From the NCBI GenBank assembly GCA_027493025.1, contig JAPUDQ010000035.1:1-42691 (forward strand): a stretch of DNA of 42,691 nucleotides. Direction: 5' to 3'. The notes beneath the pieces were generated by a model. The model saw nothing but the letters and a program-made list of their open reading frames with translations. It did not search any database and had not been told where the DNA came from. Shown here piece by piece: positions 1 to 16,705 of this stretch. This DNA is from Candidatus Saccharimonadota bacterium (GTDB lineage Bacteria > Patescibacteriota > Saccharimonadia > Saccharimonadales > Saccharimonadaceae). The position numbers and the translations under genes were made by a program. Within the stretch, counting starts at the first letter, position 1. The number at the start of each line of letters is the position of its first letter.

Positions 1-2
1 CC

Positions 3-1012
3 CACTGTCCGGCGTCGTTGTGGGGGGTGGGGAGGCGTGTCATGGGAGGCTCCTTAGTGGGTTATAGTATTGTAGATATGTATTTATTTAAGCATGAAAG
101 GTATGTCGGCACAAGATTCGCTATTTGTTTTAGCTACATTTTTTCTTCGCTTGCGACCGCACAGGCATACCTAGCACTTCCTTCTGATGCCTCATTTATA
201 ACCTGGAATCCAGCCTGGTCCGTTGATCGTGATCTTGAAGATATGTTTGCCAATGAGCTAACCGACAACGATATCCTGGTCCTGCCTGAACGTGACACAC
301 CCTATCTCATTGACTCTTCAGAGGGCTTTCGTGCGTCAGGAGTAAGCGCCGTGACTGGACGCAACGGTAATCTTCAGAACTAATCGGCGCTCAAGAGAAA
401 GTTATTGAGTCCATCCATAGTGATCCCTATTTTGGAAACTTCACCATGCAAGGACGAGATCTATGCGGCGTTGCATATACGGCAATAGCAACCTATTCTA
501 CAGGACGGCAAGTGTTTGAACATCTTGACTTATCTGGTGCTTGGCGTGTCGCGACCTCACCAATCATGATTAATGCATCTCTTGGTGGTAGCGGTGACGC
601 GATGGTTATGACAGAGTCAGTTGCCGGTATGCCGACAATTTGGAATTCTCGAGGTAAACATATATTTCGTAACGTCCATTCACGTTTTCACCGTGGATTT
701 GGTGTCAATCTTGAAAAATGCCAAGCTGGTTTTGAGTTTGAATGACATGGCGGTTCTATTTGGTGCGACTATGACGGCAATGGCGACCGCTTCCCTAAAC
801 TAACTGACCAAGGGGTATATACTATGATGCACATAGGATTATTCTCCGAGGTAGGATCAGCTAAGATAACCCTCCGGGGCGTTGATCTTGATCGTGGCTA
901 CACACCGGGGGCACTCAATATCCAAGGTTATGGCGCCACCCATCAACAAGCGAGTGATATTCAATGTTTCGACGTCAATGGCGTGCCTATTCCCGTAAAG
1001 CTTTATGCTTGA
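3..1012 (+). pseudogene. 3' part of an unrecognised membrane-anchored protein gene, broken by a frameshift and an in-frame TGA
   Basis: The reading frame is already open at the window edge, so the 5' part is missing. It shows one hydrophobic segment (about 109-174) followed by a polar, apparently extracytoplasmic region, and runs to a stop at 381. Coding then resumes one frame over: from 371 the other frame is open to 1012 apart from a single TGA at 743-745. Loss of one T near 369-372 would join the two parts smoothly, restoring Asn-Ser-Ser-Glu. After the TGA the frame continues with Gly-Gly-Ser-Ile-Trp-Cys and then an acidic DYDGNGD stretch that looks like a calcium-binding loop. The last bases overlap the 3' end of the DUF4868 gene on the other strand. 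I do not recognise the family. It is either a decaying gene or an intact one with two sequencing errors near a contig end; the sequence cannot separate these. Confidence 0.55.
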
Positions 1013-2037
1013 TTTTCATCTTGGCCGAGACGTTTCTTGCCTTTGATCTCATATTTATTCCCTGTCATAGGTGACTCCACATAATCGTCATTGAGTAAGT
1101 TGACGAATGTACTTGCATCACGACCATCCATGATGATAATTGCTTCCGCCTCATCTTGCATGAGGTTAAGCTCCATCTCATCCGACTGCTCCATGAGCTT
1201 ATCACTCGGGATAAAGTGCGTCGTATCAAACTTTTGTAATTTATTAACAAGTGTTGGCTTTTCTTTGATCAGACCCTCAAGCGTCATACCCTCAGGTAGA
1301 CTAAGCTTATATTGCGCTTCGATTGCCCGGATTTTTTCCTCAGCGATGGCATGTTTTTTGGCGCTATAGCCAAAGAGACGCTCGAATTTACTCTCCGAAA
1401 ATGCAAAGATTTCATCATCGATGATAAGGACTTGGTTATCTGGCGTCACCCGAAGACCCGCGTCAGCGCTAAATGGACGGAATGATCCCTCATCAAACAT
1501 CCACGCGGTCGCGCCTTTGAGTACCTGCGACTGCGGCAATAGTTTCACGACGTAAAACGGTGAACCATCTGGTATACTAAATTTCGCTACCATGCCTTTG
1601 ACGCGCTTGAACTCGTGATCTCCTTCGGAAAAAATCTCTAGGCTATCGCCGCCATGCATCACTTGTTCCATCACTTCTTGAGCGTGCTGAACATCGTCAA
1701 TATACGTACGAGCAAGGACGTTCTCTTCCGACTCCGCGGCTTCAAAATCTCGGACTTTTAGCCCCATCGCCGCACCTGTCTGTACCTCACTCAAGAGATC
1801 ATAGAGAAATAGTACTTTTAGTTGATTCTTCAGCTCAGCTTGATAATTGGTAGCGTATACCGTGTAGTTTTTGGTAAAAAGATAGAGATCAACCTCTAAT
1901 TTGTCTTTAAGTGCATCGTATTTATTTGCCCACAAAAATATATCAACGGGTTGTTTTTTTGAGTCAACGGACACGTCTTGAGAACTATTTAGTACGGATT
2001 TTTCTGACTGTTTTGGGTGTAAGGTGTTTTCTTCCAT
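1003..2037 (-). CDS. DUF4868 domain protein, KwaB-like (Kiwa anti-phage family)
   Basis: 344 aa, soluble, acidic, no signal peptide or membrane segment. From about residue 150 onward the pattern fits DUF4868: a beta-rich core (FSIPDGSPFYVVKLL), then a hydrophobic IIDDEIFAFSESKFERLF motif followed by a long helix, and a C-terminal LLNDDYVESPMTGNKYEI stretch. DUF4868 is the domain of KwaB, the cytoplasmic partner of the membrane protein KwaA in the Kiwa phage-defence system. The N-terminal 30 residues are polar and probably disordered. The ATG is preceded by a TACACT -10 box 7 nt away and an AGAAGG that could also act as ribosome binding site. The gene directly upstream on the same strand, 21 nt away, encodes a membrane protein, so a two-gene unit is likely. 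The family call is by motif recognition; a role in defence is inferred. Confidence 0.7.
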   Translation of the reverse strand: MEENTLHPKQSEKSVLNSSQDVSVDSKKQPVDIFLWANKYDALKDKLEVDLYLFTKNYTVYATNYQAELKNQLKVLFLYDLLSEVQTGAAMGLKVRDFEAAESEENVLARTYIDDVQHAQEVMEQVMHGGDSLEIFSEGDHEFKRVKGMVAKFSIPDGSPFYVVKLLPQSQVLKGATAWMFDEGSFRPFSADAGLRVTPDNQVLIIDDEIFAFSESKFERLFGYSAKKHAIAEEKIRAIEAQYKLSLPEGMTLEGLIKEKPTLVNKLQKFDTTHFIPSDKLMEQSDEMELNLMQDEAEAIIIMDGRDASTFVNLLNDDYVESPMTGNKYEIKGKKRLGQDENQA

Positions 2038-2044
2038 GCCTTCT

Positions 2045-2050
2045 AGTGTA
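2045..2050 (-). promoter_or_regulatory. -10 box (TACACT) 7 nt before the DUF4868 start
   Basis: On the minus strand TACACT ends 7 nt before the ATG at 2037, the spacing seen at other leaderless-type starts in this window. If active, it would let this gene be transcribed apart from the upstream Excalibur gene. No convincing -35 element was seen. Confidence 0.35.
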
Positions 2051-2058
2051 GCAGAAGA

Positions 2059-2652
2059 CTAGCGCTCACAGGCAACCCCATCCCCATCACGATCAAGTTT
2101 TGGATCATAGGCTGGATCAGTCTTCTCAATATCATAGATACCGGCATTGAAGACCTCCGTGCAATTAGCAAACGTACGCCCATAGGTTGGCTCACTTCGA
2201 GTACGATTCTTGACATTCTCCAAGCTCCCGCGCGTTACCTGACTATCCGTACTATCAACAGGTACCTGCGTATTGACGTAGCCTAGACCGGTGCCGAACC
2301 ATACGACCGTAATAATGCTCAAAACCGCAAACGCTGGACTTTTTTTGAACCCTTCAGGATCACGCACCCACATGATTGCCATAATTGCGAGTGGAATAAC
2401 AGGTAAAACGATGAGCCAAAGTACGTAGCCGATGACAATCCGTTTCACTTTTGACCACTGTTGGTACTTATATTTTGTAAACGGTAGACGTGATAGCAAA
2501 TAGTCTGCACCACGTAAAAACAAACTTTTTTTCTCGCCTGACGTTGTCACATAATTACGAGTACGGGTTGTATCTGCATTCTGCTCAACCGAAACAGCCA
2601 TTTGCGTTGGCTGACGACGGCGTTTCATGGTCTTATGGGTAGGACGATCCAT
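2059..2652 (-). CDS. Two-helix membrane protein with C-terminal Excalibur calcium-binding domain
   Basis: 197 aa. A basic, polar N-terminus of about 70 residues (rich in Arg/Lys/Thr) is followed by two hydrophobic segments, roughly residues 72-95 and 106-128. The C-terminal about 36 residues (CTEVFNAGIYDIEKTDPAYD followed by LDRDGDGVACE) match the Excalibur fold: two cysteines bracketing the region and the DxDxDGxxCE calcium-loop signature. With two membrane passes, N- and C-termini should lie on the same side; if the domain is outside, as is usual for Excalibur, an extra topology element or a signal-anchor/re-entrant arrangement is needed, so topology is unsettled. An AGGAG ribosome binding site precedes the ATG and a TATAAT lies further upstream. 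It is the first gene of a probable pair with the DUF4868 gene 21 nt downstream. Confidence 0.75.
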   Translation of the reverse strand: MDRPTHKTMKRRRQPTQMAVSVEQNADTTRTRNYVTTSGEKKSLFLRGADYLLSRLPFTKYKYQQWSKVKRIVIGYVLWLIVLPVIPLAIMAIMWVRDPEGFKKSPAFAVLSIITVVWFGTGLGYVNTQVPVDSTDSQVTRGSLENVKNRTRSEPTYGRTFANCTEVFNAGIYDIEKTDPAYDPKLDRDGDGVACER

Positions 2653-2719: not shown

Positions 2720-3367
2720 TTAGATATCACGAATCGGATGCATAAGTCGTAGTTCTTCAACCAAGTACGTACCGTTGTCGCTTTCATAGACATATTCCAC
2801 CATATGTCGGGCGCAAAAATAATCACCATTTTCAACAATCTTATAGTAAAGCTGTGCTTCGCGCGCATAATTATCATGAGGGATTGGTCCCGTAAAGACA
2901 CAAAACTCCCGCTCATTACCCGGTGTGAGACGATAATCTAACTCTTTTTTGCCGCCAATCATCGTAATCTTATCCAGCTCTATCTCGACCTCTGATTTGT
3001 TTTCAATATGTGCCCACACTTCACAATGATCACCGCTCACGTGTGTCTGACACCGAGTAACCTCAACTTCAGGGATGATTTTTTTGCCACGGTCATCATG
3101 GATTCCATCTGAAGCAGACTGTGTATTGACAGAAGACTCCTTGGGCGTAGACTTCGCCGACGAGTCCGATGGAAGTGTAATCCCGCCTAACGGCCGATAT
3201 TGCTTAGGATTTTCTGTCTGTATACCGGTATCATCTGGCAATACTGCGTCTTGCCACTCGCCAACATCAGCCCGTGAAGGATTAGGTGTATTTTTTTGTT
3301 CATCACCCGCCTGAAACACCGGCTCTCCGACGATCATCCGTTTTATTGTTGTCCAAAATCCTGCCAT
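2720..3367 (-). CDS. Hypothetical protein with disordered N-half and beta-rich C-half
   Basis: 215 aa; I do not recognise the family. Residues 1-100 are polar and low in hydrophobics (Ser/Asp/Pro-rich linker), while residues about 100-215 look like a compact beta domain with four or more alternating strands and three cysteines. There is no signal peptide or membrane segment. A GAGGTAGAGAA purine run sits just before the ATG and serves as ribosome binding site. It is the first of three minus-strand genes with the Excalibur and DUF4868 proteins, separated from the former by 67 nt holding a TATAAT-like promoter, so it may be its own transcript. Length and composition suggest a cytoplasmic accessory protein; no function can be assigned. 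Confidence 0.7.
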   Translation of the reverse strand: MAGFWTTIKRMIVGEPVFQAGDEQKNTPNPSRADVGEWQDAVLPDDTGIQTENPKQYRPLGGITLPSDSSAKSTPKESSVNTQSASDGIHDDRGKKIIPEVEVTRCQTHVSGDHCEVWAHIENKSEVEIELDKITMIGGKKELDYRLTPGNEREFCVFTGPIPHDNYAREAQLYYKIVENGDYFCARHMVEYVYESDNGTYLVEELRLMHPIRDI

Positions 3368-3419: not shown

Positions 3420-3839
3420 TTATAGACGTTCACCCGTGCGTGCTCGATTCGCCCATTGATCAGCCAGTTCATTGCCCTCAAGCCCATCATGACCACGCAC
3501 CCATTTGAATGTTGCTCGAGATTGCTTATACTTCTCATAAGCTGCTTGAACGATATCAAGATTCTTAATCTCACCGCCCTTTTTCTTCCAACCGTTCGCC
3601 TCCCAAGCAATTGACCACTTTGTAAGAACATTGATCCAAAATTCACTATCAGTATAAATCTCACATGGCTTACCAGCCGCATACTCTAAAGCCGCAATTA
3701 ATGCCACTCCCTCCATACGGATGTTTGTCGTTACACCAACCTCAGAACCAAGCGCTACAGGTTTCTCCTCATGAATAACGGCATAACCACCTGGACCAGG
3801 GTTGGGGCTCGCACTACCATCCGTATAAAGCTGAATCAC
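3420..3839 (-). CDS. rnhA: Ribonuclease HI
   Basis: 139 aa. Hydrolyses the RNA strand of RNA-DNA hybrids (R-loops, Okazaki primers). The RNase H fold motifs are in order: YTDGSASPNPGPGG with catalytic Asp7, Glu43 in the RMEGVALIAAL helix, Asp64 in IYTDSEFWIN, the flexible-loop His near residue 117 (VRGHDG) and Asp127 in NELADQWA. All four acidic catalytic residues are present. The start codon is GTG at 3837-3839; an AGAGGAA sequence lies 13 nt upstream inside the end of the MMPL gene, whose stop is 5 nt away, so the two are probably co-transcribed. Length is slightly under the E. coli enzyme (155 aa). Confidence 0.95.
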   Translation of the reverse strand: MIQLYTDGSASPNPGPGGYAVIHEEKPVALGSEVGVTTNIRMEGVALIAALEYAAGKPCEIYTDSEFWINVLTKWSIAWEANGWKKKGGEIKNLDIVQAAYEKYKQSRATFKWVRGHDGLEGNELADQWANRARTGERL

Positions 3840-8563: not shown

Positions 8564-9940
8564 TTATCTAAGCTTGTCGGCAGTAGTCCGTTTCTGCTCC
8601 GTCGTATCCCGATCGCGCACGGTCACCGTGCCATCTTCAAGTGTCTGGAAATCGATCACAATACATTCGGGCGTGCCAATCTCGTCTTGGCGGCGGTAGC
8701 GTTTGCCGATATTACCATTGTCATCCCATTCACAGACGTATTTCTGAGATAATTGCCCATATATCTCGCGTGCTTTTGTTACCAGCTCAGGTTTATTTTT
8801 GAGTAGCGGGAAGACTGCATAACGGACCGGCGCAAGATCTTTATGGAGCTTCAGGACTGTCCGAGTGTCGCCATTTTCCATGGATTCGACCGTATAGGCA
8901 TCACAGAGAACCGTCATAAAGATACGCCCCATACCCATCGAGGTTTCCAAAATCCACGGAATGTACGTCTCGCCACTTTTCGGATCACGATAGTTGAGGT
9001 CAGTACCTGAGAACTTCATATGCTGCGACAGATCATAATCCGTCCGATCGTGAATTCCCTCCACCTCATCATAGCCAAGACTTGGAAAGTTGTACTCGAT
9101 GTCCCATGCATCTGATGCATAAAACACCAGGTTGTCATGTTGTTTCCATCGCAAATTCTCCTCTCGGATACCGAGCGAAAGATACCACTGCCACCGATCT
9201 TGTTTGATCGCTTCGTAAGCATCCTTATTCTGGTGCGGCGGCACGAAAAACTGCGTATCAGCCTGTTCCAGCTCCCGCGTACGAAACAAAAAATTCCGCG
9301 GACTAATCTCATTGCGAAAGGCTTTACCGATCTGTGCAATCCCAAATGGAATTTTCATCCGGGTGGTATCAACAATATTCTTAAAGTTCAGATATATGCC
9401 CTGACATGCCTCACCGGGCAGATAGACCGGTCGGTCATCTTTACCGGTAAAGTCACCAAGGTTGGACTTGACGAGCAGATTAAAGGCTTTGACATTTGAA
9501 AAGTTCTTTTTACCGCAACTTGGACATTTGATTTTGTCGCGGTTCCCATCAAACAAAGCGTTGAGGTCAGTTTCGCTCATTTTTTCATCAGCAGTCACAC
9601 CGACCGCCCCAAGCTCCTTATCGACCCGAATCCGTGTATGGCACTCCTTGCACTCGGCTAGAGGGTCCGAAAAACCGCTCGTATGACCTGATGCCTCCCA
9701 GACTTTTGGATGCTTAAACATTGCCGAGTCAAGGCCCACGTAATTTTCTTTACGGTGGACGTTCGTCTGCCACCATGATTTCTTGATATTATTCAACAGC
9801 TCCACACCATAGGGGCCAAAATCATACAGTCCCGCTTCGCCACCATATATTTCTGAGCCAGGATAAACAAATCCTCTCCGTTTGGCGAGCGAAACGATAT
9901 CATCTAATTTAATTTCTTGCGAATCCTGATTTGCCGCCAT
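8564..9940 (-). CDS. glyS: Glycyl-tRNA synthetase, dimeric class II type
   Basis: 458 aa. Charges tRNA-Gly with glycine. It is the single-chain alpha2 type found in Gram-positives and eukaryotes, not the alpha/beta heterotetramer. The N-terminal class II motif 1 region (RRGFVYPGSEIYGGEAGLYD) is typical; two CxxC pairs (Cys97/Cys100 and Cys139/Cys142) form a zinc-binding insertion; motif 2 is FRNEISPRNFLFRTREL and motif 3 is ETSMGMGR. A C-terminal anticodon-binding domain follows from about residue 365. The ATG is 7 nt after a GGGAG ribosome binding site. Immediately upstream sits a 15-nt palindrome (9959-9973) between the TATACT -10 and the start, which may be regulatory. Confidence 0.96.
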   Translation of the reverse strand: MAANQDSQEIKLDDIVSLAKRRGFVYPGSEIYGGEAGLYDFGPYGVELLNNIKKSWWQTNVHRKENYVGLDSAMFKHPKVWEASGHTSGFSDPLAECKECHTRIRVDKELGAVGVTADEKMSETDLNALFDGNRDKIKCPSCGKKNFSNVKAFNLLVKSNLGDFTGKDDRPVYLPGEACQGIYLNFKNIVDTTRMKIPFGIAQIGKAFRNEISPRNFLFRTRELEQADTQFFVPPHQNKDAYEAIKQDRWQWYLSLGIREENLRWKQHDNLVFYASDAWDIEYNFPSLGYDEVEGIHDRTDYDLSQHMKFSGTDLNYRDPKSGETYIPWILETSMGMGRIFMTVLCDAYTVESMENGDTRTVLKLHKDLAPVRYAVFPLLKNKPELVTKAREIYGQLSQKYVCEWDDNGNIGKRYRRQDEIGTPECIVIDFQTLEDGTVTVRDRDTTEQKRTTADKLR

Positions 9941-10183: not shown

Positions 10184-10858
10184 TCATTCGTGCGCGATAC
10201 GACCGATCTGCTGACATACCTTCAAAAAATCATCCACTCCTGTAATATGAGCAATGACCTGCGGGTTTTGCGCACTCGCTACCCGAAGAAACTTTATATG
10301 GTCACTCGTAAACTCGCCACGCTCGTCATATACAAATGCCATATCTTCAACATCAAACCGGTAGGTTGCATCCTCAACAAGCTTCATTCCATTGTGATCA
10401 GTAGCAAGGTTGATACCTACACCGAGGAGAATCGCCATTTGCATGCGATACCATAGCTCAGTCACCCCCAAGGGTATACGACCATTATCAAGGCTCTCAA
10501 GCAGAGTATGAGTCAGCACGTAAAAGGCTGGTTCGGTTAGTAACTCGGCTGCACGCGCGACATCTTTTAGAACAAAATAAGCAAATTGCAATCGATCATA
10601 ATCAGCTAAGATACTATTGTAAAATTTTTCCAATCTAGCAGATGTTACAATTGCTAGCTCGCCCTTTCCCTGATGAAGTGTCAAGGTACAAACAGCCAGC
10701 AACTCAATCCCTCCAGCTAGTTTACTCTTTTCGCGGCGAACAGCTTTGGCAATCACTCCTATTTTGCCATACTCCGGAGTGATAATTTGCATGATTCGAT
10801 CAGCCTCACCATAATTCACCCGGCTAAGGATAATTGCCTTTGTAACGAGACTACTCAT
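10184..10858 (-). CDS. recO: DNA repair protein RecO
   Basis: 224 aa. RecO binds single-stranded DNA and SSB and, with RecR/RecF, loads RecA. The N-terminal OB-fold signature is clear: AIILSRVNYGEADRIMQIIT, followed by GKIGVIAKAVRR and the GGIELLAVCTLTLHQGKGEL region; the rest is the helical domain. The zinc-finger cysteines present in some RecO proteins are absent. The ATG at 10858 is preferred over the in-frame GTG one codon earlier; either start overlaps the end of the response regulator gene, so RecO is translated from the same transcript as the upstream kinase-regulator pair. Confidence 0.92.
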   Translation of the reverse strand: MSSLVTKAIILSRVNYGEADRIMQIITPEYGKIGVIAKAVRREKSKLAGGIELLAVCTLTLHQGKGELAIVTSARLEKFYNSILADYDRLQFAYFVLKDVARAAELLTEPAFYVLTHTLLESLDNGRIPLGVTELWYRMQMAILLGVGINLATDHNGMKLVEDATYRFDVEDMAFVYDERGEFTSDHIKFLRVASAQNPQVIAHITGVDDFLKVCQQIGRIAHE

Positions 10859-15526: not shown

Positions 15527-16705
15527 ATGGCATCTTTATGTATCCTTGGCCGTCAACCAGCAATTGGTCGAGCTGAGCTCGAGTCATTATATGGCGCAAT
15601 AAACCTTACCTTGCTTGGCGAAACAACCGTGATGGTTGAAGCAGAGGTTAATTTTGGGCGACTCGGCAGTGTCGTCAAAATGGCTGAATTGCTGGATATA
15701 CTTGATACAACAAATCCCCAAAAGGCTTTTGACTATTGTCGACATTCCTTACCCAAGTACCTCACTAATCTGCCTGACGGCAAGGTCAAACTCGGCGTCA
15801 GTTTATACGGTCTGTCAATGCCGCTGCATAAGATTAACGCCAACATGCTCAGTCTTAAAAAGGCAATCAAAACCACTGGCCGCTCCGTACGGGTCATCCC
15901 AAATACTGAGTCTGCGCTCAGCAGCGCCCAAACATATCACAACTCACTTGCCAGTGATCTCGGTTTTGAGCTTGTCTTTATCCAGCACGACGCCAAAACC
16001 TATCTCGGACGCATCACCCACGTCCAAGCTATCGACAGTTATACCCGTCGAGACCGAGAACGGCCAAAAAGAGACGCTTTCAACGGCATGTTGCCACCAA
16101 AGCTCGCCCAAACCATCATCAATTTGGCCACACCGGCCGGTCAGACTATCACGACAATACTCGATCCATTCTGTGGCACAGGCGTCATCCTACAAGAAGC
16201 CCAGCTAATGGGTTATGCCGTCTACGGAACAGATATTAGTCCCAAAATGGTCGACTTTAGCCGTCAAAACCTCGATTGGTTGTATAGCCGTTATCCGCAG
16301 CTTTCGTCATCGGCCACCATATCTCCCGCGGATGCGACATCCTACCAATGGACTATACCCGATACCGTCACTGTTGCCTGCGAAGGCTACCTCGGCCAAC
16401 CAATCGGCGGCCAAAACCCCACGCAGGAGAAATTGCAAGACATCATCCACGATTGCAATGCCGTTATGCGCGGTTTTTTGCGCAACATCCAGCCTCAGCT
16501 ACCAACCGGCACACACCTTTGTATCGCCGCCCCCGCCTGGCAGATTGGAGGGCAGCTTCATCACTTGCCCGTTATTAGCGAGCTCGCAACGCTCGGGTTT
16601 GAACGCATCTCTTTCCAGACTACGACAACAGAAGACCTCCTCTACCGCCGCGAAAACCAGCAAACAGCTCGAGAACTGCTCGTTCTACGTACTCACGATA
16701 ATTAA
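15527..16705 (+). CDS. TRM11-like RNA methyltransferase
   Basis: 392 aa. The N-terminal half (about residues 1-170) looks like a THUMP-containing RNA-binding region; the C-terminal half is a class I methyltransferase with RDRERPKRDAFNGMLPPKLA leading to the SAM motif DPFCGTGVILQEAQLMG. In TRM11 and related tRNA guanosine methyltransferases the catalytic motif IV reads DPPY; here the equivalent position reads ACEGYLGQPIGG, so substrate or chemistry may differ. The start at 15527 is favoured because of the leaderless-type TATACT and because the longer frame runs into the divergent promoter. Target is likely tRNA by family, not shown by the sequence. Confidence 0.82.
   Translation: MASLCILGRQPAIGRAELESLYGAINLTLLGETTVMVEAEVNFGRLGSVVKMAELLDILDTTNPQKAFDYCRHSLPKYLTNLPDGKVKLGVSLYGLSMPLHKINANMLSLKKAIKTTGRSVRVIPNTESALSSAQTYHNSLASDLGFELVFIQHDAKTYLGRITHVQAIDSYTRRDRERPKRDAFNGMLPPKLAQTIINLATPAGQTITTILDPFCGTGVILQEAQLMGYAVYGTDISPKMVDFSRQNLDWLYSRYPQLSSSATISPADATSYQWTIPDTVTVACEGYLGQPIGGQNPTQEKLQDIIHDCNAVMRGFLRNIQPQLPTGTHLCIAAPAWQIGGQLHHLPVISELATLGFERISFQTTTTEDLLYRRENQQTARELLVLRTHDN

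What the first reader, a model, noticed from the sequence alone, without database searches (positions are those of the whole stretch)
1003..2652. Possible Kiwa-like defence pair: DUF4868/KwaB-like protein with a membrane Excalibur protein
The 344-aa protein has the DUF4868 pattern (hydrophobic IIDDEIFAFSESKFERLF motif and the LLNDDYVESPMTG end). Known Kiwa systems pair KwaB (DUF4868) with KwaA, a small multi-helix membrane protein. Here the gene 21 nt upstream is also a small membrane protein, but with two helices and a calcium-binding Excalibur domain not present in KwaA. This could be a variant architecture in an episymbiotic lineage, where a surface sensor replaces KwaA, or a chance neighbour.
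Basis: partly seen in the sequence, partly recalled or inferred. Interest (0 to 1): 0.7.

Follow-up and report, generated by a model that had tools for sequence, protein, structure and literature searches.

The report
Core KwaB homologue paired with helicase
The gene is a real relative of the phage-defence protein KwaB, but in these tiny parasitic Saccharibacteria it is a near-universal, strongly conserved chromosomal gene usually sitting beside a DNA helicase gene, and the membrane-protein gene next to it here is a rare neighbour, so a two-gene Kiwa-like defence pair is unlikely.

Summary
The 344-aa protein is a full-length KwaB homologue: Pfam PF16162 47 bits (cut-off 26); predicted fold matches solved KwaB (Foldseek E 2e-12, Z 17) far above the next match. 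The upstream gene is a two-helix membrane protein with an Excalibur domain, 21 nt away. They are not a conserved pair. The KwaB homologue occurs in about 93% of sampled genomes of the window's family and 61% of its order (Candidatus Saccharibacteria), normally single-copy, and almost nowhere else in a phylum sample. It evolves under strong purifying selection (dN/dS about 0.02). Its recurring neighbour is a PIF1/RecD2-like helicase (71 of 80 named loci; same strand in 101 of 101), alongside RNase H, GlyRS, RecO and YvcK. The Excalibur protein is found in 22 of 392 genomes and directly precedes the KwaB homologue in only two loci seen; its closest relative lies in a genome without KwaB. KwaA is found in three genomes, each also carrying the core gene elsewhere. 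Most likely this is a domesticated or ancestral KwaB-family DNA-binding protein acting with a helicase in DNA maintenance or constitutive surveillance, without a membrane partner. Function is inferred, not shown.

The parts
1003..2037 (-). Core KwaB homologue (DUF4868/PF16162), 344 aa; N-terminal alpha/beta domain plus helical C-terminal domain; carries the KwaB-type LLNDDYxxS motif
2059..2652 (-). Two-helix membrane protein with C-terminal Excalibur domain, 197 aa; occasional neighbour, not a conserved partner
2720..3367 (-). 215-aa protein of unknown family (cluster c18) that sits next to the Excalibur gene in several relatives, including G088, which lacks the KwaB homologue
3420..3839 (-). 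RNase H, a recurrent upstream neighbour of the KwaB homologue in the order (immediately upstream in 25 of 80 named loci)
8564..9940 (-). GlyRS, 458 aa; recurrent member of the same neighbourhood (family identified on an orthologue; the window's copy belongs to the same cluster c5)
10184..10858 (-). RecO, 224 aa; recurrent member of the same neighbourhood (cluster c6)
1..1002 (+). Contig end with three short consecutive open frames, apparently a broken gene, between the KwaB homologue and the contig edge; the genome's PIF1 helicase gene lies on a separate 3.4-kb contig (G000:C6)

Best explanation
A lineage-wide, chromosomal KwaB-family protein of Saccharibacteria that works in the cytoplasm as a DNA-binding protein together with (or on the same substrates as) a PIF1/RecD2-like helicase, in DNA maintenance or as constitutive surveillance of damaged or incoming DNA. 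It needs no KwaA and no dedicated membrane partner. Shown here: KwaB fold and motifs; near-core single-copy distribution; strong purifying selection; lasting linkage to the helicase gene in both gene orders; absence of KwaA; rare, loose linkage to the Excalibur gene. Inferred: dimerisation and DNA binding (from homology to KwaB, which binds DNA without cutting it), and joint action with the helicase (from linkage).
For: Fold: AlphaFold pLDDT 87.7; Foldseek to KwaB 9mtn/9mrx/9nyu E 1.9e-12 to 3.7e-11, next hit 0.76; VIA-align Z 17.4, with the nucleoid protein YejK a distant next at Z 5.1. Distribution: 239/392 genomes of the order, 187/205 in the family by Pfam, three more recovered as contig-edge fragments by the orthologue profile, giving about 190/205; beyond the order only three sub-cut-off hits in a 379-genome phylum sample. 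Orthologues score 484-535 bits on their own profile against 132 and 21 bits for KwaA-linked KwaBs of the same group. dN/dS median 0.018, at or below PIF1 0.035 and YvcK 0.025. PIF1 helicase in 71/80 named loci, same strand 101/101, within 120 nt in 39, in both orders, with overlap or gaps of a few nt in several. In L173 the order is Excalibur, 20 nt, KwaB homologue, 1-nt overlap, PIF1. The helicase resembles RecD2/RecD, and Kiwa is reported to act through a RecBCD-dependent pathway with KwaB active without KwaA (PMC11514479).
Against: The link with the helicase is not obligatory: genus g3 keeps the KwaB homologue but shows no PIF1 match in the g3 genomes listed as lacking it, and many genomes (for example g6, g112, g124) keep PIF1 without the KwaB homologue. 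The gene has been lost repeatedly, so it is not essential across the order. Neighbourhood conservation in streamlined genomes can persist without joint function. The gene tree is not fully congruent with taxonomy (family held as one clade: p-AU 0.019). No biochemical evidence.
Confidence: 0.5

Rival explanations
1. Stand-alone constitutive anti-phage/anti-plasmid defence: a KwaB without KwaA that blocks foreign DNA replication, with the RecD2/PIF1-like helicase in the role RecBCD has in Kiwa.
For: KwaB reported to have anti-phage effect without KwaA and to act through RecBCD (PMC11514479); KwaB binds injected DNA and blocks replication and late transcription (PMC12904381); linkage to a RecD-like helicase; the gene can be lost.
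Against: About 93% presence in the family, very low dN/dS and housekeeping neighbours are unlike accessory defence genes; no clear defence genes among ten window neighbours scanned; no relative found on IMG/VR or phage records with core sequences.
Confidence: 0.27
2. Kiwa-like two-gene defence pair in which the Excalibur membrane protein replaces KwaA as surface sensor.
For: 21-nt spacing and same strand in the window; same arrangement with a 20-nt gap in L173; in four genomes of genus g110 the Excalibur gene lies one or two genes upstream; linkage within about 6 kb in 8 of 12 genomes having both (counted by eye).
Against: Excalibur found in 22/392 genomes against 239/392; no significant co-occurrence; Excalibur kept near PIF1 where the KwaB homologue is missing (G088, G311); elsewhere far away (G109, G386, G176, G079); no consistent membrane gene upstream in 80 loci.
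Confidence: 0.05
3. Regulatory or nucleoid-associated DNA-binding protein (YejK-like) with no link to the helicase; linkage only reflects a conserved locus.
For: YejK is the next structural match after KwaB (Z 5.1, 128 residues, 4.3 A); helicase and KwaB homologue are each found without the other.
Against: Z 5 may be only a shared arrangement (note); linkage in both orders with unchanged strand suggests selection to stay together.
Confidence: 0.15

Closest known systems
KwaB of Kiwa (PF16162/DUF4868; PDB 9mtn, 9nyu, 9mrx)
   Same: Full-length fold match, two-domain layout, conserved DDYxxS region
   Different: No KwaA; near-core distribution in Saccharibacteria; housekeeping locus; helicase neighbour; about 14-15% identity to the solved KwaB in the structural alignment
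KwaA-linked KwaB of Saccharibacterial genome G191 (L032)
   Same: 27% identity to the window protein, same motifs, same order
   Different: Preceded by a KwaA (NF041622, 88 bits); no PIF1 neighbour among the 13 genes listed around it; scores 132 bits on the core-orthologue profile, where core members score over 480
YejK nucleoid-associated protein (PDB 9be2)
   Same: Weak structural likeness of the N-terminal half (Z 5.1)
   Different: No sequence link found here; likeness may be only a common arrangement
RecD2/PIF1-like helicases (PF05970; TIGR01448)
   Same: Identity of the usual neighbour; a 64% identical copy is in the window's own genome on contig C6
   Different: A separate protein; 80 bits, under the 500-bit RecD2 equivalog cut-off

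Membership tests
KwaB (DUF4868) protein family | Match to the KwaB profile over its curated cut-off | tested here: met
   PF16162 47.3 bits over 26.3
KwaB (DUF4868) protein family | KwaB fold over the whole protein | tested here: met
   Foldseek E 1.9e-12 over 318 columns; Z 17.4 over 290 residues, with a 12 A rmsd that suggests different domain placement
KwaB (DUF4868) protein family | NCBIfam equivalog score for anti-phage KwaB (200 bits) | tested here: not met
   53 bits; a KwaA-linked KwaB of the same order also fails at 65 bits, so this bears on the equivalog name, not on family homology
Kiwa defence system | KwaA gene next to KwaB | tested here: not met
   No KwaA match in the window's genome; 3 of 392 in the order; the adjacent Excalibur gene has no KwaA hit in PADLOC or NCBIfam
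Kiwa defence system | KwaB-KwaA membrane supercomplex | not testable with these tools
   Needs protein-protein data
Kiwa defence system | Protection against phage | not testable with these tools
   Needs a phage challenge
Accessory defence gene | Patchy distribution, defence-island context | tested here: not met
   About 190/205 in the family; housekeeping neighbours; few PADLOC hits among 10 window neighbours, the hits being MTase-like

The most novel reading that the evidence does not exclude
A KwaB-family protein and a RecD2/PIF1-like helicase form a core, membrane-independent DNA surveillance or maintenance module of Saccharibacteria: either an ancestral function from which the Kiwa effector was recruited, or a domesticated defence effector.
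Probability: 0.35. Interest if true: 0.75.

Novelty: new variant of a known kind. Interest (0 to 1): 0.5.

Why it matters
Kiwa is reported as a rare accessory two-gene system (1.8% of genomes, PMC11514479). A KwaB relative that is near-universal and strongly constrained in a family of Saccharibacteria and common in its order, without KwaA and beside a RecD-like helicase, would separate KwaB's DNA role from membrane sensing and make its RecBCD link testable in a minimal, genetically tractable epibiont. It also warns that profile hits to KwaB in Saccharibacteria should not be counted as Kiwa defence systems.

Tried and rejected
Single-sequence scan of genome contigs with the window protein found nothing; the profile found 384 relatives. 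IMG/VR and phage searches with core sequences, and phage and plasmid searches with the G191 KwaB, found no relative. A structure match to a 217-aa fragment named Siphoviridae sp. ctQNW6 (45% identity) was not traced in the phage collection; a bacterial contig filed as viral is suspected, unproven. Distance correlation between the KwaB homologue and neighbour genes was weak to moderate (Pearson -0.07 to 0.57) on a set chosen for similarity to the window, so it was not used. The tree with KwaA-linked KwaBs had end branches of about 4-9 changes per site for most of them, so the branching order between the two kinds is unreliable. Joining window contig C35 to contig C6 was considered: no end overlap (longest shared word 9 nt), so it stays a guess. 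The Cell 2025 Kiwa structure paper was not held, so DNA-contact and KwaA-contact residues were not tested. One family scan failed for wrong coordinates and was repeated with others.

Full report
What is there. The 344-aa protein matches Pfam KwaB at 47.3 bits over a 26.3 cut-off, PADLOC KwaB over nearly its whole length, and the NCBIfam KwaB equivalog at 53 bits, far under its 200-bit cut-off. That last shortfall says little, because a KwaB directly behind a KwaA in related genome G191 scores 65 bits. The 197-aa protein has an Excalibur domain at 50 bits over 22 and two hydrophobic stretches.

Fold. AlphaFold2 on 39 orthologues gave mean pLDDT 87.7. Foldseek's first six PDB matches are all KwaB (E 1.9e-12 to 3.7e-11); the seventh is unrelated at E 0.76. 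VIA-align gives Z 16.4 to 17.4 over 282-290 residues; the 12 A rmsd suggests the two domains sit differently. Next comes YejK, a nucleoid-associated protein, at Z 5.1, which may be only a shared arrangement.

Distribution. In 392 genomes of the order the KwaB profile matches 239, and 187 of 205 in the window's family, nearly always once; none of 14 control genomes match (the family count is my tally of its rows). The orthologue profile recovers three more family genomes as contig-edge fragments and finds no match in the other fifteen, so about 190 of 205. In a 379-genome sample of the phylum, only three weak sub-cut-off hits fall outside the order. Named relatives are mostly labelled Candidatus Saccharibacteria, including oral TM7 taxa 348, 350 and 352; a few carry vaguer labels.

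No KwaA. The KwaA model finds three genomes of 392, none the window's. G191 has KwaA and KwaB at C1:156-158 kb and, separately, the core homologue beside PIF1 at C1:836-839 kb. G365 and G230 also have a KwaA-like gene followed by another gene (a Pfam KwaB match in G365; no Pfam hit in G230), on a contig apart from the core homologue. On the core profile the core copies score 484-535 bits and the KwaA-linked ones of G191 and G365 score 132 and 21. The two kinds therefore coexist and are separable.

Neighbourhood. In 80 named loci a PIF1/RecD2-like helicase lies in the fetched stretch in 71, RNase H in 52, YvcK in 52, RsmH in 40, GlyRS in 38 (identities). Over 119 loci from two overlapping sets (some genomes are in both), the helicase is on the same strand in 101 of 101, downstream in 85 and upstream in 16, and within 120 nt in 39. 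The chance figures treat loci as independent, which they are not. In the window the helicase cannot be seen, because the contig ends 1 kb past the KwaB homologue; the genome's copy is on 3.4-kb contig C6.

Not obligatory. Several genomes of genus g3 keep the KwaB homologue with no PIF1 match at E 0.001, while g6 and several others keep PIF1 without it. So the linkage points to a shared process rather than a fixed complex.

The Excalibur gene. It matches 22 of 392 genomes, about 15 of them across the membrane part. Counting by eye, 12 of those 15 have the KwaB homologue, against 227 of 377 elsewhere (p 0.18). It is directly upstream in the window and in L173 (20-nt gap), one or two genes upstream in four g110 genomes, several genes away in G150, G158 and G218, and elsewhere in the genome in G079, G109, G386 and G176. 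In G088, which has the closest Excalibur homologue (75% identity), there is no KwaB homologue and the Excalibur gene sits by c18 and PIF1. It reads as a member of a variable stretch in this locus.

Selection. Six close pairs give a median dN/dS of 0.018 (largest 0.024), at or below PIF1 and YvcK; the pairs are few and dS is high. The tree is structured by family but not perfectly: holding the family as one clade is rejected at p 0.019.

Reading. KwaB binds DNA and blocks its replication without cutting it (PMC12904381), has been reported to act without KwaA, and Kiwa is reported to depend on RecBCD (PMC11514479). A KwaB relative kept beside a RecD-like helicase in a near-core locus fits a DNA-handling role without a membrane sensor. 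Whether that is maintenance or always-on defence cannot be decided from sequence. The Excalibur-for-KwaA idea is unlikely (0.05).

Noticed in passing
window 1-1002: Three short consecutive + strand open frames at the contig end look like a broken gene; no Pfam match above cut-off.
   Followed up: partly
window 2720-3367; L084, L085, L088, L089, L090: Unknown protein c18 is repeatedly next to the Excalibur gene and may be its real companion.
   Followed up: partly
L087:4254-4838: In a g110 genome a DUF937 protein follows the Excalibur gene upstream of the KwaB homologue.
   Followed up: no
L042, L048-L050, L153, L155, L203 and others: Opposite-strand genes with one hydrophobic stretch (clusters c28, c29) are inserted between the KwaB homologue and PIF1 in many genomes, a possible hotspot for surface-protein genes.
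   Followed up: no
L032:5483-6983: A KwaA-KwaB operon in Saccharibacterial genome G191, a real Kiwa candidate in the lineage.
   Followed up: partly
BFVD A0A8S5QWK1 (not in the window): A 217-aa fragment filed under Siphoviridae sp. ctQNW6 is 45% identical to the window protein: phage-borne copy or misfiled bacterial contig.
   Followed up: partly
window 15527-16705 (+): Protein with weak methyltransferase-type PADLOC hits (mad2 E 1.7e-11, MTase_II), probably a housekeeping methyltransferase.
   Followed up: no
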